Virus record (IMG/VR): IMGVR_UViG_3300010885_018971
Location: 1-64,000 of that record
Reading direction: 5' to 3' (one strand)
DNA length: 64,000 nt
From: a virus
A program made the translations under genes and the position numbers. The notes under the pieces were generated by a model, which was given only the letters and a program-made list of their open reading frames with translations, did no database searches and was not told where the DNA came from. Positions 16,470-48,688 of this stretch are shown here, in pieces; positions within the stretch are counted from its first letter, which is position 1; every line of letters begins with the position of its first letter.

Positions 16470-16545
16470 AGGGGATTCGCCAAGTCGGTAAGGCACTGGA
16501 TTTTGATTCCAGCATGCGGTGGTTCGAGCCCATCATCCCCTGCCA
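16470..16545 (+). tRNA. tRNA-Gln (TTG)
   Basis: Full cloverleaf with 7-bp acceptor AGGGGAT/ATCCCCT, anticodon TTG in GGATTTTGATTCC and encoded CCA. Confidence 0.93.
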
Positions 16546-16549
16546 AATT

Positions 16550-16625
16550 GCGTCCTTAGCTCAGCTGGTAGAGCAGTAGACTTTTAATCTATTGGTCGTG
16601 GGTTCGAATCCCGCAGGACGCACCA
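16550..16625 (+). tRNA. tRNA-Lys (TTT)
   Basis: Acceptor GCGTCCT/AGGACGC, canonical GGTTCGAATCC T-arm, anticodon TTT, encoded CCA. Confidence 0.95.
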
Positions 16626-16658
16626 TATAAAAATGTATTACACAGTATGTTTTTATAT

Positions 16659-16734
16659 GGTGATTGTAGCTCAATGGTAGAGTCCAGGATTGTGATTCCT
16701 GTTGTTGTGAGTTCGAATCTCATCAGTCACCCCA
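16659..16734 (+). tRNA. tRNA-His (GTG)
   Basis: Anticodon GTG. The extra 5' G opposite C73 that HisRS requires is encoded, followed by CCA. Confidence 0.95.
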
Positions 16735-16736
16735 AT

Positions 16737-16812
16737 GCCAAGGTAGCTCATCAGGTAGAGCACCAGACTGAAAATCTGGGTGTGGTTGGTTCGAGTCCAA
16801 CTCTTGGTACCA
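16737..16812 (+). tRNA. tRNA-Phe (GAA)
   Basis: Anticodon GAA in CAGACTGAAAATCTG, acceptor GCCAAGG paired with TCTTGGT, A73 and CCA encoded. Confidence 0.95.
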
Positions 16813-16817
16813 GTTAT

Positions 16818-16892
16818 AGCCAATTAGCTCAGTGGTAGAGCAATCGCTTGATAAGCGATAGGTCAGTGGATCGTAACCACTATTGGCTACCA
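16818..16892 (+). tRNA. tRNA-Ile (GAT), altered T-loop
   Basis: Anticodon GAT in CGCTTGATAAGCG, acceptor AGCCAAT/ATTGGCT, CCA encoded. The T-loop reads ATCGTAA instead of TTCGAAT: the T54-A58 pair is swapped to A54-T58. Confidence 0.9.
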
Positions 16893-16898
16893 AGTTAT

Positions 16899-16990
16899 GG
16901 AAAGTAATGCAGGTGCGTTGGTGCGCCGACCAGCCTTGAAAACTGGGTTCTCAGAAATGGGATGGGGTTCGACTCCTCTGCTTTCCGCCA
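16899..16990 (+). tRNA. tRNA-Ser (TGA)
   Basis: Class II tRNA with long variable arm, anticodon TGA, acceptor GGAAAGT/GCTTTCC, G73 typical of serine tRNAs and encoded CCA. Confidence 0.93.
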
Positions 16991-16995
16991 GTTAT

Positions 16996-17070
16996 ACCCT
17001 CTTAGTAAAATGAATATTACACATCGCTACGAACGATGAAGTGGTGGTTTGATTCCATCAGAGGGTACCA
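16996..17070 (+). tRNA. tRNA-Arg (ACG), unusual D- and T-loops
   Basis: Acceptor ACCCTCT/AGAGGGT, anticodon stem CATCG/CGATG with anticodon ACG, CCA encoded. The D-loop AATGAATA lacks GG and the T-loop is TTTGATT, so the usual G19-C56 contact would become A19-T56. Confidence 0.85.
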
Positions 17071-17075
17071 AGTTA

Positions 17076-17165
17076 GGAAGATGGGCAGGACGGTAATGCA
17101 GCAGATTGCTAATCTGTAGGGTGTAGTAATACGCTCACAGGGTTCGATTCCCTGATCTTCCACCA
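17076..17165 (+). tRNA. tRNA-Ser (GCT)
   Basis: Class II with long variable arm, anticodon GCT in CAGATTGCTAATCTG, acceptor GGAAGAT/ATCTTCC, CCA encoded. Confidence 0.93.
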
Positions 17166-17171
17166 GAGTTT

Positions 17172-17256
17172 GCGAGTATGGTGAAATAGGTAGACACAAG
17201 AGACTTAAAATCTCTCGACGCAAGTCGTGCTGGTTCGATTCCTGCTACTCGCACCA
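17172..17256 (+). tRNA. tRNA-Leu (TAA)
   Basis: Class II, anticodon TAA, acceptor GCGAGTA/TACTCGC, A73 and CCA encoded. Confidence 0.94.
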
Positions 17257-17257
17257 T

Positions 17258-17334
17258 GTCACTTTAGCTCAGTAGGATAGAGCAACAACCTTCTAAGTTG
17301 TGGGTCAGTGGTTCGAATCCACTAAGTGACGCCA
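17258..17334 (+). tRNA. tRNA-Arg (TCT)
   Basis: Anticodon TCT in ACAACCTTCTAAGTTGT, acceptor GTCACTT/AAGTGAC, G73, CCA encoded. Confidence 0.94.
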
Positions 17335-17340
17335 GATATT

Positions 17341-17415
17341 GGGCTGATAGCTTAATGGTAAAGCAGTCGACTCATAATCGATTGAGTCTAGGTTCAATTC
17401 CTAGTCAGCCCACCA
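17341..17415 (+). tRNA. tRNA with CAT anticodon, probably Ile2 (lysidine type)
   Basis: Acceptor GGGCTGA/TCAGCCC, CCA encoded. The anticodon arm TCGACTCATAATCGA resembles bacterial tRNA-Ile2, whose C34 is changed to lysidine to read ATA. Identity is inferred; an elongator Met is the alternative. Confidence 0.8.
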
Positions 17416-17420
17416 GATAT

Positions 17421-17495
17421 GCACGTGTGACTGAATGGTAAGGTAGCGGTTTGCAAGTCCGATGTTCACAGGTTCGATTCCTGTCACGTGCTCCA
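17421..17495 (+). tRNA. tRNA-Cys (GCA)
   Basis: Anticodon GCA, acceptor GCACGTG/CACGTGC, U73 typical of tRNA-Cys, CCA encoded. Confidence 0.94.
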
Positions 17496-17497
17496 GA

Positions 17498-17644
17498 TTA
17501 TTTTTTATTGTAAAGTTCGAAAAGAGTTTTTACTTTTTCTTCTAACACAGAAAGACGATTGTCAGCTTTTGCAAGTACAATCACCAATGTGATGAATCCA
17601 AGAAAGACTGGCCACAACTTCATGATGTTATCGATTAGATCCAT
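17498..17644 (-). CDS. Small single-pass membrane protein (holin-like candidate)
   Basis: 48 residues on the minus strand between the two tRNA arrays. Sequence: short N-terminus, a membrane helix (LWPVFLGFITLVIVLAKA) and a charged helical tail (DNRLSVLEEKVKTLFELY). A strong GGAGG lies seven bases before the ATG and a perfect T4 late element is upstream on the same strand. Size and topology fit a one-pass holin, antiholin or other small lysis/membrane peptide; not assigned to a family. Confidence 0.7.
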   Translation of the reverse strand: MDLIDNIMKLWPVFLGFITLVIVLAKADNRLSVLEEKVKTLFELYNKK

Positions 17645-17662
17645 GGTTCCTCCATTTTGCTC

Positions 17663-17670
17663 TATTTATA
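17663..17670 (-). promoter_or_regulatory. Late promoter TATAAATA
   Basis: Exact match to the T4 late consensus on the minus strand, 18 bases before the small membrane protein start, leaving a short leader that contains its GGAGG. Confidence 0.7.
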
Positions 17671-17705
17671 ATACCACTTTGCAAAAAGGGTCATTAAAAT
17701 ATCGC

Positions 17706-17734
17706 TTGCCTTTTATTGATAGTTGAGGTATAAT
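17706..17734 (+). promoter_or_regulatory. Early promoter of second tRNA array
   Basis: TTGCCT, 17 bp, TATAAT, with the usual ATCGC before the -35. Here no ATG follows; the boxA-like site begins 16 bases after the -10. Confidence 0.85.
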
Positions 17735-17750
17735 AACTGTAAGTTAGTTG

Positions 17751-17772
17751 AAATTGTTCTTTAAAAATTTGC
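17751..17772 (+). promoter_or_regulatory. boxA-like antitermination site, copy 2
   Basis: Perfect 22-bp repeat of the site at 16436, here abutting the first base of tRNA-Glu and close to the transcription start, as in rrn leaders. Confidence 0.7.
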
Positions 17773-17846
17773 TCGGTTCGTCTATCGGCTAGGACACTGC
17801 CCTTTCACGGCAGGAAGGAGGGGTTCGATTCCCCCACCGAGTACCA
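17771..17846 (+). tRNA. tRNA-Glu (TTC)
   Basis: Anticodon TTC, acceptor GCTCGGT with ACCGAGT, CCA encoded. Overlaps the end of the boxA repeat by two bases. Confidence 0.94.
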
Positions 17847-18059
17847 GATTTAATTGCATTGGGTTGCCAACCCCAGTAGGCAATGTGATTGTGAATGTTA
17901 TGCGACGGCATGGCCACGATTGTATTGCACGAAACCTTGAGATCGTATCAGGAGGACGCTGGACAAAGTTGGATCGTAATGTGGTAACAACCAATCGTCA
18001 GACGATGACGTGGTAAACCCTGAGTGGGTGTTGTCTATCATCCCAGTGTAATTAAATGT
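17847..18059 (+). other. Gene-free spacer RNA in tRNA array
   Basis: 213 bases between tRNA-Glu and a structured element. No supported ORF and no cloverleaf found. It contains small hairpins, such as GGGTTGCCAACCC near 17864 and ATCGTCAGACGAT at 17994. Whether it is stable RNA or only processed spacer is unknown. Confidence 0.4.
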
Positions 18060-18184
18060 GGTATTAGTTTTGCTGATGTAAGCCATGGGTAATCGTAACA
18101 CCTGAGTAACTCTGTCAATAAACGGTAGTGTGGCCACCAATTCCGTTGAGGCTTAGCAAATAGTGCGTCAGCAAAACTAATATC
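18060..18184 (+). ncRNA. Long-stem structured RNA candidate
   Basis: A 19-base left arm (GGTATTAGTTTTGCTGATG) pairs with 18166-18184 apart from G-U pairs, and a second stem TAAGCC/GGCTTA continues it after a ten-base bulge. The interior holds ACGG/CCGT. It ends two bases before tRNA-Tyr. T4 also carries stable non-tRNA species in its tRNA cluster, so a small stable RNA is plausible; function unknown. Confidence 0.5.
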
Positions 18185-18186
18185 AT

Positions 18187-18271
18187 GGAGACACGGCAAA
18201 GTTGGAGAGTTGCGGCAGACTGTAAATCTGTTCTTTCGGGTGAGTAAGTTCGAATCTTACTGTCTCCACCA
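18187..18271 (+). tRNA. tRNA-Tyr (GTA)
   Basis: Class II variable arm, anticodon GTA in CAGACTGTAAATCTG, acceptor GGAGACA/TGTCTCC, CCA encoded. Confidence 0.94.
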
Positions 18272-18341
18272 AAACAAATGATCGTAACAGATCCAATGTT
18301 TGTTAGTTTCAATGGGTGTTATAGAAACTATCTGGAATTTA

Positions 18342-18416
18342 GGTCTCAAAGTGTTCATGGACGCACACAACACTGTCACTGTTGAAGAAGGGGATCGTTA
18401 CCCCTTGAGACCGCCA
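18342..18416 (+). tRNA. tRNA-Asp (GTC), altered T-loop
   Basis: Acceptor GGTCTCA/TGAGACC, D-arm with GG, anticodon stem CAACA/TGTTG and anticodon GTC, T-stem AGGGG/CCCCT, G73 as required by AspRS, CCA encoded. The T-loop is ATCGTTA, with the same T54-A58 to A54-T58 swap as tRNA-Ile. It may be missed by search tools. Confidence 0.82.
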
Positions 18417-18421
18417 GTTAT

Positions 18422-18496
18422 CGCAGAGTAGAGAAGTAGTATCTCATCAGGTTCATACCCTGAAGGTCGGTGGTGCGATTCCATCCTCTGCAACCA
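18422..18496 (+). tRNA. Initiator tRNA-fMet (CAT)
   Basis: Acceptor CGCAGAG with CTCTGCA leaves the C1-A72 mismatch of bacterial initiators, and the D-stem has A11-T24, another initiator feature. Anticodon CAT, CCA encoded. Only two of the three G-C pairs at 29-31/39-41 are present. Confidence 0.85.
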
Positions 18497-18754
18497 AAAC
18501 ACGTGGCTTTGTTCGCCACTACTGTGACCCGCAGGATAGAAGTGCCGTGACTGGCAAGGGTGGTTCTGAAAGAAAACGTAGCCATGCGAGTGGAGCGAAG
18601 TCCTTTCACTGATGTAAAAGTCAGCAGTCTTACCGAACTGGCGTTGGCAATACGATAGTCCTATGTGTGGCAAGTTGGTGGAAGGTACGTGTGATGGGTG
18701 CGATAGCGTCGTATCTTGATGTGCTATAATTACAACGACATATAGGAAGCACCT
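18497..18754 (+). other. Gene-free segment, possible structured RNA and internal promoter
   Basis: 258 bases between fMet and Leu tRNAs. No supported ORF or cloverleaf. It contains GTGGC/GCCAC and AGTG/CACT hairpins and, at 18722-18730, TGCTATAAT, an extended -10 box that could restart transcription before the last tRNAs. Function otherwise unknown. Confidence 0.4.
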
Positions 18755-18837
18755 GCCCCGATGGTGGAATTGGTAGACACGCTGGTCTTAGAAGCCAGTA
18801 CTTCGGTGTGCGAGTTCGAGTCTCGCTTGGGGCACCA
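18755..18837 (+). tRNA. tRNA-Leu (TAG)
   Basis: Class II, anticodon TAG, acceptor GCCCCGA paired with TTGGGGC, A73, CCA encoded. Confidence 0.94.
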
Positions 18838-18845
18838 AGAATTTT

Positions 18846-18920
18846 GCCTTGTTAGCTCAGTGGTAGAGCGTCTCGTTTACACCGAGAGGGTCGGCAGTTC
18901 GAAACTGTCACAAGGTACCA
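18846..18920 (+). tRNA. tRNA-Val (TAC)
   Basis: Anticodon TAC, acceptor GCCTTGT/ACAAGGT, A73, CCA encoded. Confidence 0.95.
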
Positions 18921-18922
18921 AT

Positions 18923-18997
18923 GGTGATGTAGCACAGTGGTAGTGCAATTGCTTCATACGCAATTGGTCGTTGGTTCAAATCCAACCATCACCACCA
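18923..18997 (+). tRNA. tRNA-Met (CAT), elongator
   Basis: Acceptor GGTGATG/CATCACC fully paired, so not an initiator; anticodon CAT in ATTGCTTCATACGCAAT, CCA encoded. Elongator Met is the best assignment given a separate Ile2-like tRNA at 17341. Confidence 0.85.
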
Positions 18998-19013
18998 TTA
19001 TAAGTAGAATTAT

Positions 19014-19090
<77 letters not shown>

Positions 19091-19095
19091 AGTTT

Positions 19096-19170
19096 GCCGA
19101 ATTAGCACAGTGGTAGTGCAATCGCCTTGTAAGCGATAGGTCGTCAGTTCGAATCCGACATTCGGCACCA
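19096..19170 (+). tRNA. tRNA-Thr (TGT)
   Basis: Anticodon TGT in ATCGCCTTGTAAGCGAT, acceptor GCCGAAT/ATTCGGC, CCA encoded. Confidence 0.95.
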
Positions 19171-19176
19171 AGTTAT

Positions 19177-19251
19177 TCCAGAGTAGCACAGCGGTAGTGC
19201 AGTTGACTGTTAATCAATTGGTCGTAGGTTCGATCCCTGCCTCTGGAGCCA
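19177..19251 (+). tRNA. tRNA-Asn (GTT)
   Basis: Anticodon GTT, acceptor TCCAGAG/CTCTGGA, G73 typical of tRNA-Asn, CCA encoded. Confidence 0.95.
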
Positions 19252-19256
19252 ATATT

Positions 19257-19330
19257 GGGGGATTAGTATAATGGGATTACGGCAGCTTTGCAAGCTGTTT
19301 ATGAGAGTTCGATTCTCTCATCCTCCACCA
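19257..19330 (+). tRNA. tRNA-Ala (TGC)
   Basis: Anticodon TGC; acceptor GGGGGAT/ATCCTCC carries the G3-U70 pair that identifies alanine tRNAs; CCA encoded. Confidence 0.95.
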
Positions 19331-19364
19331 GTTTTTGTTAGATAAGTAAATAAAGGAAAATAGT

Positions 19365-19550
19365 ATGACTAATCATGAAACATTAAAGGCGCAGTTCGAA
19401 GTGTATTTGGCAGAGAACGAGAAATTTACAACCAAAGGTGTGAAGGCATCTGCGGCACGTGCACGTAAAGCATTGCAGGAAATTAGCAAAGCAATTCGTG
19501 AGCGTCGCAAAGAAATCACAGCTGAGAAAGAGGCATTGGCAGCAAAATGA
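19365..19550 (+). CDS. Histone H1-like small basic phage protein
   Basis: 61 residues, Lys/Arg/Ala-rich (TTKGVKASAARARKALQEISKAIRERRKEI). The VKAxAxRARKAL pattern matches small phage proteins often labelled histone H1-like; DNA binding is possible but unproved. AAGGAAAA precedes the start. It lies within the tRNA region between Ala and Trp tRNAs. Confidence 0.7.
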   Translation: MTNHETLKAQFEVYLAENEKFTTKGVKASAARARKALQEISKAIRERRKEITAEKEALAAK

Positions 19551-19756
19551 ACGGTAAAGGTAGCAAGGCAAGACCATTCAGTGTAACTCAACAAGAATAT
19601 GAATCTCGTTGGGATGCAATCTTTGGACGGGACATAAAAGAAGATAACACAGGCACTAGTAAGAATGAGTTTCAGGATGTATTGTCAACAGAAGATTGTA
19701 TGACAATGGAAATGCCAGGAACAATTGGTGGTGCTAAAATTGTTTTTAAAGAGTAA
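19547..19756 (+). CDS. Small conserved phage protein
   Basis: 69 residues starting MNGKGSKARPFSVTQQEYESRWDAIFG, a start seen in other phage small proteins. ATGA overlap with the previous gene. Function unknown. Confidence 0.7.
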   Translation: MNGKGSKARPFSVTQQEYESRWDAIFGRDIKEDNTGTSKNEFQDVLSTEDCMTMEMPGTIGGAKIVFKE

Positions 19757-19759
19757 AGT

Positions 19760-19833
19760 ATCTCGCTGGTGTAATGGCAGCACGTGGGTCTCCAAAACCC
19801 TTGGTCGGAGTTCGAGTCTCTGGCGGGATGCCA
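19760..19833 (+). tRNA. tRNA-Trp (CCA)
   Basis: Anticodon CCA in GGGTCTCCAAAACCC, acceptor ATCTCGC/GCGGGAT, G73 typical of tRNA-Trp, 3' CCA encoded. Confidence 0.94.
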
Positions 19834-19836
19834 ATT

Positions 19837-19910
19837 GCGGGTATGATGTAAAGGTAACCTGAATCCTTGCCAAGGATTACATCCGAGTTCGATTCTCGGT
19901 ACCCGCTCCA
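19837..19910 (+). tRNA. tRNA-Gly (GCC)
   Basis: Anticodon GCC in AATCCTTGCCAAGGATT, acceptor GCGGGTA/TACCCGC, U73 as in bacterial glycine tRNAs, CCA encoded. Confidence 0.95.
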
Positions 19911-34417: not shown

Positions 34418-34585
34418 ATGTTATGTGATAAAGTTGAGATTGGACCCAGTATTATTATTCTAGACAAAGAGGTGACGTTAAGTTCGTTGCCTGGATGGGT
34501 AGAAGGTGATATGTTCAAATTGATTATTGGTGCAAATGGAAATGTTACATTTATCAAGGTTACCCAACCTGGAGGTGTAATGTAG
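34418..34585 (+). CDS. Small hypothetical protein
   Basis: 55 residues (VEIGPSIIILDKEVTLSSLP ... NGNVTFIKVTQPGG), plausible beta-sheet protein. The start lies one base after the -10 box, so its message would have to come from upstream. Its stop lies in the tmRNA acceptor piece. May be only precursor RNA. Confidence 0.35.
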   Translation: MLCDKVEIGPSIIILDKEVTLSSLPGWVEGDMFKLIIGANGNVTFIKVTQPGGVM

Positions 34586-34650
34586 TATTGCTGTATGAAA
34601 TGATGTAAAAGGTGTTCTGGACGGGAGTTCGATTCTCCCCACCTCCACCA
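34575..34650 (+). ncRNA. ssrA: Permuted tmRNA, acceptor piece (3' end of mature RNA)
   Basis: Ends with T-arm GGGAG-TTCGATT-CTCCC, acceptor strand CACCTCC, A and CCA. Upstream AATGTAGTA ... GATGTAAAAGG ... TTCTGGAC follows the 3' part of E. coli tmRNA. TATTGC at 34586 can pair with GCAATA at 34706 (helix P2). The exact 5' end is uncertain by about 10 bases. It is encoded before, not after, the tag-coding piece. Confidence 0.85.
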
Positions 34651-34682
34651 AAATTCATTATTGTGTAGTAGTGAGTTTTGGT
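34651..34682 (+). other. tmRNA intervening segment
   Basis: 32 bases joining the CCA end to the 5' end of the coding piece. AAAATTCA and TGAGTTTT extend the acceptor stem through the CCA (CACCA with TGGTG), giving about 18 continuous pairs in the precursor with a 14-base loop. This is the expected processing hairpin of a circularly permuted tmRNA. Confidence 0.8.
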
Positions 34683-34938
34683 GGGGGTGACTAGGTTTCG
34701 ACAGGGCAATAAGTAACTGAGTGGACAGCACGAGACAGATACTCGTAAAAAGTAAATAAAGTAAACGCAAACGACTCACAGTTCGCATTGGCAGCCTAAA
34801 CGCTGACTAGGGTTTCGGTAGGTTTCCTCGTAACAGAATAACCTACCACTGTTAGTTAGTCTATGCTTGATGCCAGCAACCGATACCTTAGTATCTCGTA
34901 CTGAACACATTGCGACGAATCTGACAAGTTGATAGTAT
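34683..34938 (+). ncRNA. ssrA: Permuted tmRNA, coding piece (tag ANDSQFALAA)
   Basis: Starts GGGGGTG, which pairs with CACCTCC and gives the G3-U70 alanine identity pair, then ACTAGGTTTCGAC as in bacterial tmRNA. The tag frame 34767-34799 reads ANDSQFALAA and stop. Downstream is an H-type pseudoknot: GGTAGGTT/AACCTACC with TAACAG/CTGTTA. It would rescue stalled ribosomes with SmpB and mark products for proteolysis. The 3' end is estimated. Confidence 0.88.
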
Positions 34939-34967: not shown

Positions 34968-35150
34968 ATGAAAACATTGATCGCTACAATTTTGTCCGCA
35001 TTCGCATTAACATCTTTCGCTGCTGACGCACCTAAACCTGCTCCAGCTGCACCTGCTGCTGCACCTTCTGCTCCAGCTGCACCAGCAGCTAAAAAAGTAG
35101 AAGAGAAGAAAGTGGAAGCTAAGAAAGAAGAAAAGAAAGCATCTAAGTAA
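34968..35150 (+). CDS. Small secreted Ala/Pro/Lys-rich protein
   Basis: 60 residues from the ATG at 34968 (TAAGGAAA upstream). Signal peptide MKTLIATILSAFALTSFAA then low-complexity PAPAAPAAA and KKVEEKKVEAKKEEKK runs. Similar tiny secreted proteins are abundant in betaproteobacteria, so host origin is possible. Role unknown. Confidence 0.65.
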   Translation: MKTLIATILSAFALTSFAADAPKPAPAAPAAAPSAPAAPAAKKVEEKKVEAKKEEKKASK

Positions 35151-35666
35151 ATGAGATGTGCCGTACTCTGTAATGGACCAAGTCGTAGTCTTTACGTACC
35201 ATCTACAGAGTACGGATTTGTCATGGGTTGTAATATACCATGGACTACAGTTGATGCAACTATAGTTCTTGATGAAGAGGTAGTTAGGTTGTGGGCAAAG
35301 AAACCAGATCTAATTACAGTTCCAACATATTTTTCAGTTAAAGCATGGCAAGAAACTGATGCAATAAAGAAACGTGATTTCTTTAGACCATTTTTAGTTA
35401 AAACAATAACTCCAAAATATCCATATCATTCTAGTGGACATAATGCTGTTGAACAGGTTATTACCAAAGGTTATACGAACATAGATATATTTGGATGTGA
35501 TTCTTGGTTTAGTAAAGTAGGAAGATCTTATACAAGAACGCATATTAAAGAAGGTGGAATCGTTGATGGAGATATGAGACATATCGAAGGATGGCGCACC
35601 CGATGGAAAGAAATAATGGACAAACATTCAGAAGTAACATTAAATTTTATAGGGGAAACTAAATGA
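35151..35666 (+). CDS. Hypothetical Rossmann-like protein
   Basis: 171 residues. AVLCNGPSRSL at the start, GCNIPWTTVDATIVLDEE and SSGHNAVEQVITKGYTNIDIFGCDSWF suggest an alpha/beta fold like DUF115/MptE or sialyltransferase-like proteins. No function assigned. Starts directly after the previous stop. Confidence 0.55.
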   Translation: MRCAVLCNGPSRSLYVPSTEYGFVMGCNIPWTTVDATIVLDEEVVRLWAKKPDLITVPTYFSVKAWQETDAIKKRDFFRPFLVKTITPKYPYHSSGHNAVEQVITKGYTNIDIFGCDSWFSKVGRSYTRTHIKEGGIVDGDMRHIEGWRTRWKEIMDKHSEVTLNFIGETK

Positions 35667-35851
35667 AACATTTACTAGCAATTATAGCAATGGCTGTTGC
35701 TTCTACTGCATTTGCAGCTGAGCCAGCGAAGAAAGAACCAGCGAAGAAAGTTGAGAAGTGCATTCCTAGCAAAGAAGTAGTTTGTCAGGATTCTTTGAAA
35801 GGCAAAGAGCGTCCTACACCAAAGAAGAAAAAAGAAGAAACTACTAAATAA
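35663..35851 (+). CDS. Small secreted Lys/Pro-rich protein
   Basis: 62 residues: signal peptide MKHLLAIIAMAVASTAFA, then EPAKKEPAKK and a Lys-rich tail with two cysteines. Similar in style to the 34968 protein, suggesting duplication of use rather than of sequence. ATGA overlap with its predecessor. Confidence 0.65.
   Translation: MKHLLAIIAMAVASTAFAAEPAKKEPAKKVEKCIPSKEVVCQDSLKGKERPTPKKKKEETTK
35843..35850 (+). promoter_or_regulatory. Late-type promoter element
   Basis: CTAAATAA at the end of the previous gene, 63 bases before the 35913 start. Confidence 0.35.
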
Positions 35852-36245: not shown

Positions 36246-36761
36246 ATGCGAGTATATTTAAAAATACTTCTAATAATTACAACGATGGTAGGTGCCACTG
36301 CATATGTGACATCCATACCTCAAGAACAAAAATTATTCAATGTCAGATATAAAGAACTAACATCTGATGTAAGAAAACAAATTGATTGTCTTGCAGATAA
36401 CATTTACTTCGAAGCAGGACATGAACCAGAAGAAGGCAAAATTGCAGTTGCCTTGGTTACACTTAATAGAACGCAAGATCCTAGGTTTCCAAAAGAAATT
36501 TGCTCTGTAGTCAAACAGAAGGTAAACTTAGTGTGTCAGTTCTCTTGGATCTGTGAACCCATGAAAGCAATAAAACATAATGATGTATACAGAAAGTCTC
36601 AAGATGTGGCTTTGCATGTATATGCTAATTATGAAATGATTGATGACATTACAAATGGTGCACTTTACTACCATGCAGACTACGTGAATCCAGGATGGAA
36701 GTTGAAAAAGACTAAAGTCATTGGCCGACATATTTTTTATAAAGAAGGCAGTAAAATCTAA
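36246..36761 (+). CDS. SleB-like cell wall hydrolase
   Basis: 171 residues with a membrane anchor or signal segment (VYLKILLIITTMVGATAYV). CLADNIYFEAGHEPEEGKIAVALVTLNR, FPKEICSVV, CQFSW and ALYYHADYVNPGW are blocks of the SleB/Hydrolase_2 family; the Glu of YFEAG is the likely catalytic residue. It would cleave peptidoglycan in the periplasm. Overlaps the protease gene by one base. Confidence 0.85.
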   Translation: MRVYLKILLIITTMVGATAYVTSIPQEQKLFNVRYKELTSDVRKQIDCLADNIYFEAGHEPEEGKIAVALVTLNRTQDPRFPKEICSVVKQKVNLVCQFSWICEPMKAIKHNDVYRKSQDVALHVYANYEMIDDITNGALYYHADYVNPGWKLKKTKVIGRHIFYKEGSKI

Positions 36762-37321
36762 TGATGAACAAATTAAACCTCCAGCTGAATGAATCTTCTG
36801 ATTCTAGGCATTCGTTTTTTCTATTGATGGAGGAAATTACTCTTGCTACATGTAAGCAAGCAGTTGAGTGGATATTCGAAGCCAACTTTGCTGAAGAAAC
36901 ACCTGACCGATTAAATATGGTCATAACTTCTCCAGGTGGTGATTTGAATGCCGCATTTGCTTTGGTTGATACCATGCGTGGATCTTCCATTCCAATTCGA
37001 ACAATTGGACTTGGACAGATTGCTTCAGCTGGACTTATGATTTTCATTGCTGGTGAAGCAGGACAGCGTATTCTTACACCGAATACTTCTATCTTGTCAC
37101 ATCAGTACTCATGGGGTGCTTTTGGTAAGGAGCATGAGTTGTTTGCACAAATTAAAGAATTTGACTTGACAACCAAACGTATGATTGCTCATTACAAAAA
37201 ATGCACTGGATTAAAAGAAGATCAGATTCGTGAATACTTATTGCCACCACAAGATGTTTGGCTGAGTGCTCAAGAAGCTAAAAAATTAGGACTATGCGAT
37301 GACGTTAAAGAACTTAAGTAA
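36761..37321 (+). CDS. ClpP-like serine protease
   Basis: 186 residues. ITSPGGDLNAAFALVDTM, the nucleophile in GLGQIASAG (S89) and His114 in ILSHQYSWG match ClpP. No ClpX-type partner is seen here, so it may use a host unfoldase or act alone. ClpP-like genes are known in aquatic T4-like phages. The pairing with a phage tmRNA nearby is suggestive. Confidence 0.85.
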   Translation: MMNKLNLQLNESSDSRHSFFLLMEEITLATCKQAVEWIFEANFAEETPDRLNMVITSPGGDLNAAFALVDTMRGSSIPIRTIGLGQIASAGLMIFIAGEAGQRILTPNTSILSHQYSWGAFGKEHELFAQIKEFDLTTKRMIAHYKKCTGLKEDQIREYLLPPQDVWLSAQEAKKLGLCDDVKELK

Positions 37322-38352: not shown

Positions 38353-38619
38353 ATGAATCCGAACTACACCAAAATCGTATCCTGTGCCTCTGACCGTAAT
38401 CCAGTTGGCATTCAAAACATCTACGTTGAACTCCTCACTGATCGCATGAAGTTAGATAAATTCTTCTCCATGTATCTTGATAAGTTTGAACGTAAGATGG
38501 ATCCCGACAAAACTAATACACCTATCTGGGCTCTTTACAAAAAGAAACTCAAAGAATATGGTGACCTACAACAAGCCATTAAAGTGGCTGAATACTATCT
38601 AAAGAAAAGTTATGTTTAA
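38353..38619 (+). CDS. Hypothetical protein, leaderless start
   Basis: 88 residues. The only reasonable start, ATG 38353, falls at the predicted +1 of the promoter at 38318; the ten codons upstream overlap that promoter and are not used. Helical, basic. Precedes gp33. Function unknown. Confidence 0.6.
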   Translation: MNPNYTKIVSCASDRNPVGIQNIYVELLTDRMKLDKFFSMYLDKFERKMDPDKTNTPIWALYKKKLKEYGDLQQAIKVAEYYLKKSYV

Positions 38620-38827
38620 AAATTCAAACGAATTTTCACTTCACATTGAACAGTTAGTCAAAGAGAAACGAATCAATCACATGGACGCTGTACTTGAATA
38701 CTGTAAAGATAATTTCCTTGAACCAGGAGATGTTTCAAAACTTATCAATAAGTCTCTTAAGGATAAAATTGAGATGAACTTTCGTGAATTGAATTACTTA
38801 CCCAAACAGGCTCAATTGGATGTTTAA
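38612..38827 (+). CDS. 33: Late-transcription coactivator gp33-like
   Basis: 71 residues. IEQLVKEKRINHMDAVLEYCKDNFLEPGDVSKLINKSLKDKIE aligns by pattern with the core of T4 gp33 (IEKMVEEFGMSYLEA ... EENSIPETQFAKFI ... IEKIQ). The order gp33, gp59, small gene, gp32 is the mirror-image neighbourhood expected from T4. Gp33 links RNA polymerase to the sliding clamp for late promoters. Remote similarity, context strong. Confidence 0.7.
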   Translation: MFKNSNEFSLHIEQLVKEKRINHMDAVLEYCKDNFLEPGDVSKLINKSLKDKIEMNFRELNYLPKQAQLDV

Positions 38828-39441
38828 TGGACGGATTTAAGGCATATAAGTATTACATTGCAATTAAACTACACTTCACAAAAGATTCCTTTGATGTTTT
38901 CAAAAATCGTGGAACAGTCAAAGGTACTCGTGAAGCATTTAACGCAAGAAACGATAGATACATGTTTGAGAAGTTAGCTCGTAAATACCCAGTCGATAAA
39001 GATCTGATTCAGTTCTATGTTGCAAACTACGCTTATGGTAATGAAAATGTTATATATGCAATTGAAGAAGCTGACTCATACCTTATGGAATGGAATAAAC
39101 GTAAACAATCTATCACCAAGATCTTTGCAGATGATCTAAATAAGATCTTGATGGATGCATACAAACGCAAACTTAAAGAACCATCTATTTTAAATTTTAC
39201 TTTAAATCAATATCCAAGTATACTTAACCTATACCTTGGAAAACAAATTGGGATTGAAACTCTTAGGATCTTAGATGACGTAGCTACTTTAATTCAACCA
39301 TGGAAAGAAAATGCTTCCATGACTCTGCTTTGGGAAAATGAAATACGCAGAGTTGAAAAAGCAAAAGGGTTTGTTAAATATGATAAAGAAAAAACTGAAA
39401 ATCTTTATCAAGAGTTCTTGAAAGAAATCAAAGAGTTGTAA
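38827..39441 (+). CDS. 59: Helicase loader gp59-like
   Basis: 204 residues, mostly helical. The N-terminal KAYKYYIAIKLHFT-D-FDVFKNRG and RNDRYMFEKLARKY blocks and the C-terminal ENEIRRVEKAKGFV follow T4 gp59 (VYKLYLMIKQHMNGKYDVIKY, RRDKYFFQKLSEKY). Gp59 loads the gp41 helicase on gp32-coated DNA; gp32 is two genes downstream. Confidence 0.85.
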   Translation: MDGFKAYKYYIAIKLHFTKDSFDVFKNRGTVKGTREAFNARNDRYMFEKLARKYPVDKDLIQFYVANYAYGNENVIYAIEEADSYLMEWNKRKQSITKIFADDLNKILMDAYKRKLKEPSILNFTLNQYPSILNLYLGKQIGIETLRILDDVATLIQPWKENASMTLLWENEIRRVEKAKGFVKYDKEKTENLYQEFLKEIKEL

Positions 39442-39685: not shown

Positions 39686-40600
39686 ATGGATATTCAAACA
39701 CTCCGCAAAATGCGTTCTTCTGACTTCGGCAAAATCGCTGGAGAATTCGAGAAAATCGCAAATCCCCAAACCCAATCTAAGTCATATGCTGACGATCGCT
39801 TCTGGAAACTTGAAGGCGACAAAGCAGGTAATGGTACAGCCACCATTCGTTTTCTACCACGTGTAGAAGGTGATGAGTTGCCATGGGTTCGTATCTTTTC
39901 TCATGGTTTCCAAGGACCAACTGGTAAGTGGTACATTGAGAACTCACTAACTACTCTTGGTGAGAATGATCCTGTTGGTGAATTGAACACCAAACTTTGG
40001 AATTCAGGTTCTGACGCAAACAAGAAAATTGCTCAGGCTCAGAAACGTCGCCTATCTTTCATTGCCAATGTTTTGATCGTATCTGATCCAAAGCATCCTG
40101 AGAATGAAGGTCAGGTTAAGTTGTTTAAGTTCGGTAAGAAAATCTTTGACAAGATCATGGATAAGGCTCGCCCAACTTATGAAGACGAGACACCTGTAAA
40201 TGTGTTTGACTTGTGGGAAGGTGCTAACTTCAAACTGCGCATGCGCAAGAAAGATGGTTACACTAATTATGATGAGTCTTCATTCCAAGATCCTTCAGCT
40301 ATCACTGAGGATGAAGAAAAGATGTTGGCTATTGTAAATGCTCAAACTAAATTGTCTGAGTTTACAGATCGCAAGAACTTTAAATCTTATGATGAGTTGA
40401 AGAAAAAACTTGAAGAAGTTCTTTCTGGTGATGCGTTCTCTTCAAAATCTGCTGCTGAGATTGCTGAAGAAGAAGATCGTCCAGTGGCTGCTGCACCACA
40501 GATTAAATCTGTTCCAGCACCAAAGTCAAAGGAAGTCTCTTTGACTGATGACGATGAAGACGTAATGTCTTACTTTAAGAAAATCGCTCAAGAAAATTGA
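39686..40600 (+). CDS. 32: Single-stranded DNA-binding protein gp32
   Basis: 304 residues. Basic LRKMRSSDFGK N-terminus for cooperativity, an OB-fold core (ATIRFLPRVEGDELPWVRIFSHGF ... KWYIENSLTTLG), and an acidic C-terminal tail (SLTDDDEDVMSYFKKIAQ) that recruits partners. No cysteines are present, so the zinc site of T4 gp32 is absent. AAAGGAAA precedes the start. Confidence 0.93.
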   Translation: MDIQTLRKMRSSDFGKIAGEFEKIANPQTQSKSYADDRFWKLEGDKAGNGTATIRFLPRVEGDELPWVRIFSHGFQGPTGKWYIENSLTTLGENDPVGELNTKLWNSGSDANKKIAQAQKRRLSFIANVLIVSDPKHPENEGQVKLFKFGKKIFDKIMDKARPTYEDETPVNVFDLWEGANFKLRMRKKDGYTNYDESSFQDPSAITEDEEKMLAIVNAQTKLSEFTDRKNFKSYDELKKKLEEVLSGDAFSSKSAAEIAEEEDRPVAAAPQIKSVPAPKSKEVSLTDDDEDVMSYFKKIAQEN

Positions 40601-47581: not shown

Positions 47582-48688
47582 ATGGCACTACAAAACCTTA
47601 CACCTGCAAATCGTTTATATGCAGCCACATCTTTTGAGGCTGGAAAATACGACATTCAAAGCACTCAGTACCCTGATGATCTTTATAGTAACACTCGTGA
47701 ATATGGTGGAAACTACGCTTTATTCTATATTAATATTGTTCAAGAATCTAAACTTAACACACAATATAGCCAAACTACTTTAGTTGACGACGTACCAGTG
47801 GGTTTACGAGGAGATCTCGTGGGTCTTAATTTAAGTAAGAATGAATCAATTAGCGCATCTGCATTAGCTGGATTTTTTGGTGGTGCTCTTGCTGGTGGAG
47901 CATTAAATGTTGGTTCTATTAAAACTGGAATTAAGGCTGGTGCTGCTGGCGCAGTTTATGGTTCTTTAGCAACCCAAGCAATACCACTATCAACTAATGC
48001 TGAGACGTTGTCTCGTAGTCAACAGAAACGAACAAAACATGCTATCGCTTTACACATCCCAAACCAGTTAAACATTAATTATAGCGTTGACTGGCAGACT
48101 GATGAAACTTTTGCCTTTCAGGCAGCTGCAGTTGCCAACAGAGAATTAGCAAAAGCTATTTCTACGGGAGCCAAGAAAAATTCCGATAAAGCAGATGAAG
48201 TCCAAACTGCTCAAATGGGTTCTATCGCACAAGCTATTGCTTTAAGAACAGCACCTGGGATTGGTGGTGCATTATCCGCTGCAACAGGAAACTCTGCTAA
48301 TCCAAAGAAAGAACAAATATTTAAGAGCGTAAATTTTCGAGAGTTTACTTTAGATTATACATTCTCTCCAAGAGATGCTGCAGAAGCACAGGCTGTACGA
48401 AATATCATTTATCTATTCAAATTACATATGCACCCAGAGTACAAAGATGAGAATGGATTCATATTCGTGTATCCTTCTGAATTTGATATTACATATTATC
48501 AGGGTGGCAAAGAAAACTTAAATTTACATAGACACCCTTCTTGCGTACTAAAAGGTATGTCGGTAAACTATACACCTAATGGCGCATTTAATACGTTTGA
48601 GGATGGCATGCCAACTCAAATTAACATACAATTACAATTCTTAGAATTGGCTATCCTTACTAAAGAAACTATTCAGGCTAACTACTAA
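47582..48688 (+). CDS. 48: Baseplate tail-tube cap gp48-like
   Basis: 368 residues, close to the 364 of T4 gp48. Contains a Gly/Ala-rich hydrophobic stretch (ALAGFFGGALAGGALNVGS) as in related proteins and a tail-tube-like C-terminal half. The following gp53 and gp27 support the assignment. Start overlaps nothing; AGAGAAACC precedes it. Confidence 0.75.
   Translation: MALQNLTPANRLYAATSFEAGKYDIQSTQYPDDLYSNTREYGGNYALFYINIVQESKLNTQYSQTTLVDDVPVGLRGDLVGLNLSKNESISASALAGFFGGALAGGALNVGSIKTGIKAGAAGAVYGSLATQAIPLSTNAETLSRSQQKRTKHAIALHIPNQLNINYSVDWQTDETFAFQAAAVANRELAKAISTGAKKNSDKADEVQTAQMGSIAQAIALRTAPGIGGALSAATGNSANPKKEQIFKSVNFREFTLDYTFSPRDAAEAQAVRNIIYLFKLHMHPEYKDENGFIFVYPSEFDITYYQGGKENLNLHRHPSCVLKGMSVNYTPNGAFNTFEDGMPTQINIQLQFLELAILTKETIQANY

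What the first reader, a model, noticed from the sequence alone, without database searches (positions are those of the whole stretch)
34575..34938. Circularly permuted two-piece tmRNA encoded by a T4-like phage
The acceptor piece with T-arm and CCA (ends 34650) is encoded before the tag-coding piece (from 34683). Four independent features agree: G3-U70 acceptor pairing between the pieces, P2 pairing TATTGC/GCAATA, an 18-bp precursor stem running through the CCA into the 32-base intervening segment, and a tag ANDSQFALAA with an H-type pseudoknot after it. Two-piece tmRNAs are known in alphaproteobacteria, some cyanobacteria and a betaproteobacterial group; one in a phage is unusual. A ClpP-like protease gene 2 kb downstream could act on tagged proteins, which is speculation.
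Basis: partly seen in the sequence, partly recalled or inferred. Interest (0 to 1): 0.92.

Follow-up and report, generated by a model that had tools for sequence, protein, structure and literature searches.

The report
Phage-encoded two-piece tmRNA gene
A T4-like virus of bacteria carries its own intact 'split' version of the RNA that rescues stuck ribosomes; the gene is real, but dozens of related viruses, including a published one with the gene in the same spot, carry one too, so it is a good new example rather than a surprise.

Summary
Two Rfam models and ARAGORN find a permuted tmRNA: beta_tmRNA, 136.9 bits, 34513-34858; tmRNA_permuted, 129.4 bits; tag ANDSQFALAA. The one-piece model stays below its cut-off. 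Across 34 distinct viral sequences the acceptor stem always pairs, G3-U70 never varies, and compensatory changes far exceed controls. One claim is wrong: P2 is not TATTGC/GCAATA but TGCTGT/ACAGCA plus TGTTCTG/CAGGGCA.

"Unusual in a phage" is out of date. PMC9004378 reported 53 distinct two-piece tmRNAs in phages, and its methylophage Melnitz carries one in the same slot: PhoH - PDDEXK nuclease - tmRNA - gp33 - gp59 - gp32. About half of 89 IMG/VR contigs with permuted tmRNAs share that neighbourhood; a cyanophage has it empty.

New here: the window's tmRNA belongs to a phage-borne, beta-type lineage, 65% identical to its nearest bacterial relatives (Rhodocyclales) and about 80% to other phages. 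Melnitz, in the same slot, has an alpha-type one. Likely function: ribosome rescue with host SmpB; no SmpB was found in this record or 14 others. The ClpP link is speculative.

The parts
34586..34650 (+). Piece 1 of the permuted tmRNA (acceptor piece): P2 5' strands, T-arm, acceptor 3' strand CACCTCC, A73, encoded CCA; 5' end inferred
   Evidence: CM and ARAGORN; sequence; T-arm 97.6% paired across relatives, acceptor 100%
34651..34682 (+). Intervening segment (to be excised); with A73-CCA it folds back to extend the acceptor stem by 16 bp
   Evidence: MFE of 34640-34689 -33.4 kcal/mol, 23 bp; stretch between the acceptor strands alone -16.3 against shuffled mean -3.3; comparable stem in nearly all of 37 other viral contigs
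34683..34858 (+). Piece 2 (mRNA-like piece): acceptor 5' strand GGGGGTG with G3, D-like region GGTTTCGACAGG, tag frame, post-tag pseudoknot; 3' end uncertain (34858 by CM, 34890 by ARAGORN's fixed offset)
34767..34799 (+). Tag reading frame GCA AAC GAC TCA CAG TTC GCA TTG GCA GCC TAA = ANDSQFALAA*
   Evidence: ARAGORN, sequence; same tag in L002 and L079
34589..34594 (+). P2 outer helix 5' strand TGCTGT, pairs with 34725-34730 ACAGCA
   Evidence: 89.9% paired, 5 of 6 pairs with compensatory change
34613..34619 (+). P2 inner helix 5' strand TGTTCTG, pairs with 34702-34708 CAGGGCA
   Evidence: 97.5% paired, 6 of 7 pairs with compensatory change
34809..34848 (+). Post-tag H-type pseudoknot (approximate bounds): AGGG pairs with TCCT in the loop of hairpin GGTAGGTT/AACCTACC
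   Evidence: comparative pairing in phage relatives
33745..34398 (+). PDDEXK exonuclease, upstream border of the tmRNA slot
   Evidence: PF12705, phrog_298; upstream of the tmRNA in many viral contigs
34418..34585 (+). 55-aa ORF ending (TAG 34583-34585) just before the tmRNA; no family match
   Evidence: sequence; PHROGs none
36761..37321 (+). ClpP-like protease, Ser/His/Asp triad retained; minority cargo of the slot
   Evidence: PF00574 106 bits; alignment to solved ClpP; synteny
38612..39441 (+). gp33 late-transcription coactivator (38612-38827) and gp59 helicase loader (38827-39441), downstream border of the slot
   Evidence: phrog_254 and phrog_269
39686..40600 (+). gp32 ssDNA-binding protein, T4-like marker
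   Evidence: PF08804; 51.6% to Pelagibacter phage HTVC008M, 50.3% to Melnitz

Best explanation
It is a functional phage-borne ssrA gene of the circularly permuted, two-piece kind. One precursor transcript is made (here probably by read-through from upstream phage genes, since no sigma-70 promoter lies next to it, unlike in several relatives). Its acceptor stem, closed by the intervening hairpin, is cut by host RNase P at G34683 and by tRNA 3'-end nucleases at the encoded CCA (34650), leaving an acceptor piece of about 65 nt and an mRNA-like piece of about 180-210 nt held together by the acceptor stem and P2. Host AlaRS charges it through G3-U70. With host SmpB and EF-Tu it enters ribosomes stalled on broken messages during infection, adds ANDSQFALAA, and frees the ribosome; the LAA-ended tag sends the stalled peptide to host Clp proteases, possibly helped by the phage's own ClpP subunit. 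Shown here: the gene, its anatomy, its conservation and its place. Inferred from the tmRNA family: processing, charging, trans-translation. Speculative: the ClpP partnership.
For: Two CMs and ARAGORN; permuted order with the one-piece model below cut-off. Across 34 distinct viral sequences 29 pairs are 89% formed, with 127 cells changed on both sides against 35.7 in shuffles and 20 of 29 pairs with compensatory change; the acceptor stem, which joins the two pieces, is 100% paired and G3-U70 invariant. Precursor stem in nearly all relatives. Tag intact and of the AND...ALAA kind; most relatives keep an open tag frame ending in AA or a similar tail. Conserved neighbourhood in divergent T4-like contigs and in published Melnitz. 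No SmpB in this record or in 14 related records, so host SmpB would be needed. ClpP triad kept, no Clp ATPase in the record.
Against: No expression or processing data. The 90.8-kb record is probably incomplete (T4-like genomes are larger), so absence of SmpB or ClpX in this phage is not final. The host is unknown, so whether its own tmRNA is one- or two-piece is unknown. No promoter stands next to the gene in this phage. The 3' end is not defined.
Confidence: 0.8

Rival explanations
1. The gene is a host tmRNA captured recently by chance (or an assembly chimera/contamination) and has no role in the phage.
For: Phages can pick up ssrA pieces through integration near ssrA; two of the 89 'viral' contigs (L054, L069) do look like Rhodocyclales genes.
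Against: The window gene is embedded in phage genes shared with L079, another contig of the same phage (100% aa). Nearest bacterial sequences are 65% identical, phage relatives about 80%. A motif specific to its clade is absent from the genome-contig collection (84,980 species); a broader motif that it fits found essentially only Rhodocyclales-type genes. Most phages of the set encode CCA, Rhodocyclales genes mostly CC plus C/T.
Confidence: 0.04
2. It is a decayed relic: structure still recognisable but no longer processed or charged.
For: No own promoter in the window phage; beta CM score (136.9) lower than some phage relatives (up to 184.8).
Against: All acceptor, T-arm and P2 pairs, G3-U70, CCA, tag frame and precursor stem are intact; compensatory evolution across the clade.
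Confidence: 0.06
3. The phage tmRNA serves mainly to tag and destroy host (or defence) proteins, with the phage ClpP as dedicated protease, rather than to rescue ribosomes.
For: ClpP-like gene with intact triad 1.9 kb downstream in the same gene cluster, and in the same cluster in L002, L060, L074, L084; PMC9004378 suggested selective degradation of host proteins for Melnitz.
Against: Most slot phages with a permuted tmRNA lack this ClpP nearby (L010, L019, L055, L057, L075 and others); BUCT-ZZ01 has the ClpP without a tmRNA found by ARAGORN in the region examined; by general knowledge tmRNA acts on stalled ribosomes, not on chosen proteins.
Confidence: 0.1

Closest known systems
Two-piece tmRNA of Methylophilales phage Melnitz (MZ577097.1; PMC9004378)
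   Same: Permuted tmRNA in a T4-like phage, in the same slot: PhoH - PDDEXK nuclease - tmRNA - gp33 - gp59 - gp32
   Different: Melnitz: alpha_tmRNA best (106.7 bits), long intervening segment, glutamine riboswitch at its 3' side, own promoter. Window: beta_tmRNA best, 32-nt intervening segment, no riboswitch found, no adjacent promoter. The two do not group on the tmRNA tree.
Betaproteobacterial two-piece tmRNA (Rfam RF01850; Rhodocyclales such as Thauera, Azonexus, Dechloromonas)
   Same: Best-scoring of the three lineage models, over cut-off; same order of parts, same tag type
   Different: 65% identity; bacterial copies mostly have CTCCACC followed by C/T where the phage encodes CCA; tags such as ANDERFALAA/ANDEQFAIAA against ANDSQFALAA
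Permuted tmRNAs of cultured phages: Stenotrophomonas DLP_6 and BUCTxx99, Pseudomonas PaMx31, Xanthomonas XacN1 and Rb1, Alcaligenes QDWS595, Achromobacter JWDelta/Axy11
   Same: Permuted form over RF04321 cut-off in all; DLP_6, PaMx31, XacN1 and QDWS595 also over the beta cut-off
   Different: No sign of the T4-like slot in the short stretches read; no tmRNA annotation in them; diverged sequences
Cyanobacterial two-piece tmRNA (RF01851), as in Synechococcus phage S-CAM3
   Same: Permuted two-piece form in a Kyanoviridae phage
   Different: Window scores 48.4 bits, below the cyano cut-off

Membership tests
tmRNA (ssrA) | Alanine-type acceptor stem with G3-U70 and CCA | tested here: met
   G34685:T34644; CCA 34648-34650; G3-U70 invariant in 34/34
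tmRNA (ssrA) | Resume codon and short tag ending in a protease-recognised tail | tested here: met
   ANDSQFALAA*
tmRNA (ssrA) | T-arm, D-like loop without anticodon arm, P2 | tested here: met
   CM alignment, covariation
Permuted two-piece tmRNA (RF04321) | Acceptor 3' strand encoded upstream of 5' strand; score over cut-off | tested here: met
   129.4 bits against 47; one-piece model below cut-off
Permuted two-piece tmRNA (RF04321) | Intervening segment removed, two mature RNAs | not testable with these tools
   Hairpin precursor is in line with it; needs RNA data
beta_tmRNA (RF01850) | Best score among permuted lineage models and over cut-off | tested here: met
   beta 136.9, alpha 68.5, cyano 48.4 bits
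beta_tmRNA (RF01850) | Descent from betaproteobacterial ssrA | tested here: inconclusive
   Groups with Rhodocyclales against alphaproteobacteria at 100/100 but in a phage-only subgroup (82/83); AU tests reject neither arrangement
T4-like phage (Kyanoviridae-related) | gp32, gp33, gp59, T4-type baseplate genes | tested here: met
Trans-translation system | SmpB partner encoded with the tmRNA | tested here: not met
   No SmpB in this record or 14 related records; it would have to come from the host, as usual for phage tmRNAs
Trans-translation system | Tagging activity in cells | not testable with these tools
   needs experiment

The most novel reading that the evidence does not exclude
Beta-type permuted tmRNAs form an old, phage-borne lineage that moves among phages independently of host type (including phages of hosts with one-piece tmRNA such as Pseudomonas, Xanthomonas and Stenotrophomonas), and phages carried the two-piece form between bacterial groups; the Rhodocyclales two-piece tmRNA could then be a phage-derived replacement rather than an independent permutation. 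The T4-like slot between the PDDEXK nuclease and gp33 would be a standing tmRNA site whose occupant is exchanged.
Probability: 0.2. Interest if true: 0.65.

Novelty: new member of a known kind. Interest (0 to 1): 0.34.

Why it matters
It settles that the gene is intact and under selection for structure, and places it: a phage-lineage, beta-type two-piece tmRNA in a conserved T4-like gene slot. The same slot holds an alpha-type tmRNA in Melnitz, which bears on the published argument that Melnitz's alpha-type tmRNA records a host jump (PMC9004378): the occupant of the slot may be exchangeable among phages. It also makes testable whether phages spread the two-piece form.

Tried and rejected
Window-specific pseudoknot stem TAACAG/CTGTTA: good score in the window but not kept in L002, L072 or L074. 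One-piece arrangement: rejected. Glutamine riboswitch as in Melnitz: none found near the window gene. Adjacent sigma-70 promoter: present in several relatives (L002, L008, L011, L020, L035, Melnitz) but not in the window. Recent host capture: no close bacterial homologue found. Deposited phages: only weak matches to the T-arm/acceptor, no megablast match for 24 kb. The founding paper on the betaproteobacterial two-piece tmRNA (Sharkady and Williams 2004) was not held. The short tmRNA alignment (194 columns) cannot resolve deep branching; cyanobacterial tmRNAs could not be added to the tree.

Full report
OBSERVATION. The sequence at 34583-34890 (+) is a permuted tmRNA gene. Rfam gives beta_tmRNA 136.9 bits (E=1.2e-41) and tmRNA_permuted 129.4 bits, and ARAGORN calls a permuted tmRNA with tag ANDSQFALAA. 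On the same record the alpha model gives 68.5 bits, the cyano model 48.4 (below cut-off) and the one-piece model 44.4 (below cut-off, acceptor piece only).

ANATOMY. Read from the sequence: acceptor 3' strand CACCTCC 34640-34646, A73 34647, CCA 34648-34650; intervening 34651-34682; acceptor 5' strand GGGGGTG 34683-34689; tag 34767-34799. I aligned the window with 34 viral relatives (34 distinct rows in all) and counted pairs for the CM structure: 89.0% of cells paired (shuffled 76.4%), 20 of 29 pairs with compensatory change, 127 cells with change on both sides (shuffled 35.7), and sliding the partners by 1-3 columns collapses the signal. The acceptor stem is 100% paired, with G3-U70 invariant and pair 34642:34687 seen as CG, UA and GC, i.e. 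compensation between the two pieces. The relatives were found with a pattern that fixed part of the acceptor stem (CTCC and GGGG.TG), so the invariance of those pairs, G3-U70 included, is partly built in; the variable pair, the T-arm and P2 were largely free. The D-like hairpin was poorly kept in this alignment (43%), which may be misalignment. The precursor stem is 23 bp in the window, and nearly all relatives have an equivalent stem. After the tag, a hairpin whose sequence changes with pairing kept (GGTAGGTT/AACCTACC, GATTGGTT/AACCAATC, GGCAGTTT/AAACTGCC, GTAGATTGT/ACAATCTAC) holds a CCT motif in its loop that can pair with a G-rich stretch just upstream: an H-type pseudoknot (not tested against shuffles in that form).

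SURROUNDINGS. The phage is T4-like: gp32, gp33, gp59, PhoH, RNR small subunit, T4-type baseplate proteins, with 24 tRNAs by ARAGORN. Nearest named relatives by gp32 are Pelagibacter phage HTVC008M (51.6%), S-CREM1 and Melnitz (50.3%). No deposited phage is close at the DNA level. The record is 90,795 bases, probably partial.

RELATIVES. A single pattern scan of IMG/VR returned 89 contigs; ARAGORN finds a permuted tmRNA with a tag in most of them; one (L022) is not a clean permuted gene and a few are truncated. L079 is the same phage. Twenty of 20 beta-like records tested pass the beta cut-off. In 46 contigs, on the same strand, the PDDEXK nuclease lies within 5 kb upstream and/or gp33, gp59 or gp32 within 5 kb downstream (my count; many contigs are near copies of each other). 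Published Melnitz has this order; cyanophage S-CREM1 has the order without a tmRNA. ClpP is in the slot only in the window/L079, L002, L060, L074 and L084.

ORIGIN. A tree of 194 columns groups beta-type bacteria and phages against alphaproteobacteria (100/100), puts the window in starred phage-only clades, and places Melnitz with the alphaproteobacteria (Melnitz has a long branch). Nearest bacterial identity is 65.2%, nearest different phages about 80%. All phage beta-type sequences as one clade is not rejected (p-AU 0.59), but nor is window plus Rhodocyclales (p-AU 0.31), so descent is unresolved; slot phages as one clade is rejected (p 0.0024; 1.8e-5 with Melnitz), which suggests that occupants of the slot have been exchanged. 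The groups for these tests were named after the tree had been seen. Bacterial sampling came from motif scans that the window itself fits; the stricter one found nothing in 84,980 species and the looser one essentially only Rhodocyclales-type genes. Cyanobacterial tmRNAs were not in the tree.

FUNCTION. Inferred from the tmRNA family: ribosome rescue. No SmpB in the record or in 14 related ones, including Melnitz, whose record is a complete genome, so host SmpB would be needed. The ClpP-like protein keeps Ser/His/Asp but the record has no Clp ATPase, so any role would need a host ATPase. Several relatives have near-consensus sigma-70 promoters 9-11 bases before the nominal gene start, in line with early expression proposed for Melnitz (PMC9004378); the window phage lacks one.

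NOVELTY. PMC9004378 (2022) counted 402 phages with tmRNA, 133 distinct, 53 two-piece; PMC11915505 (2025) lists 79 phage tmRNAs. The find is a new member of a known kind. What I did not find stated in the papers searched is that T4-like phages share one slot filled by different tmRNA types, and that phages of hosts with (by general knowledge) one-piece tmRNA carry beta-type permuted genes.

Noticed in passing
L213 (PaMx31), L214 (XacN1), L217 (DLP_6), L215, L216, L209, L208, L212: Cultured phages of Pseudomonas, Xanthomonas, Stenotrophomonas, Alcaligenes and Achromobacter hold permuted tmRNAs over Rfam cut-offs that carry no tmRNA annotation in the features shown for the match.
   Followed up: partly
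G008 contig C14 (L218, L219; record title Pseudomonas indica NBRC 103045): The genome has a standard tmRNA (191.9 bits, 72437-72815) and, 24 kb away, a Rhodocyclales-like permuted tmRNA (166.7 bits, 48114-48322), with an ORF that reads like a large serine recombinase between them: possibly a mobile element carrying a two-piece tmRNA into a one-piece host.
   Followed up: partly
L006, L016, L024, L027, L028, L046, L067, L080, L081: Some viral permuted tmRNAs have unusually long tags of about 27-33 residues (e.g. ATQRDSMRKNNVLAFVPRFVAPMQMAA), against 10 in the window.
   Followed up: no
L043, L085, L029, L039: Some viral tags end in LVA or AANA instead of LAA (ANSDSFRLVA, ANEAFFGKFALVA, ANDAQFLVAANA), which might alter protease recognition.
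   Followed up: no
L091 11221-11694 (Melnitz): Melnitz tmRNA is alpha-type with a glutamine riboswitch match directly after it, in the slot that holds a beta-type tmRNA in the window phage.
   Followed up: partly
window 17421-17492: Rfam finds a tRNA (54.2 bits) that ARAGORN did not list, within the tRNA cluster 16470-19910.
   Followed up: no
window 34968-35150 and 35663-35851: Two small proteins with signal-peptide-like starts and Ala/Pro/Lys-rich tails follow the tmRNA; a similar short reading frame follows it in L025, and matches are seen in L072 and L084. No family match for either.
   Followed up: no
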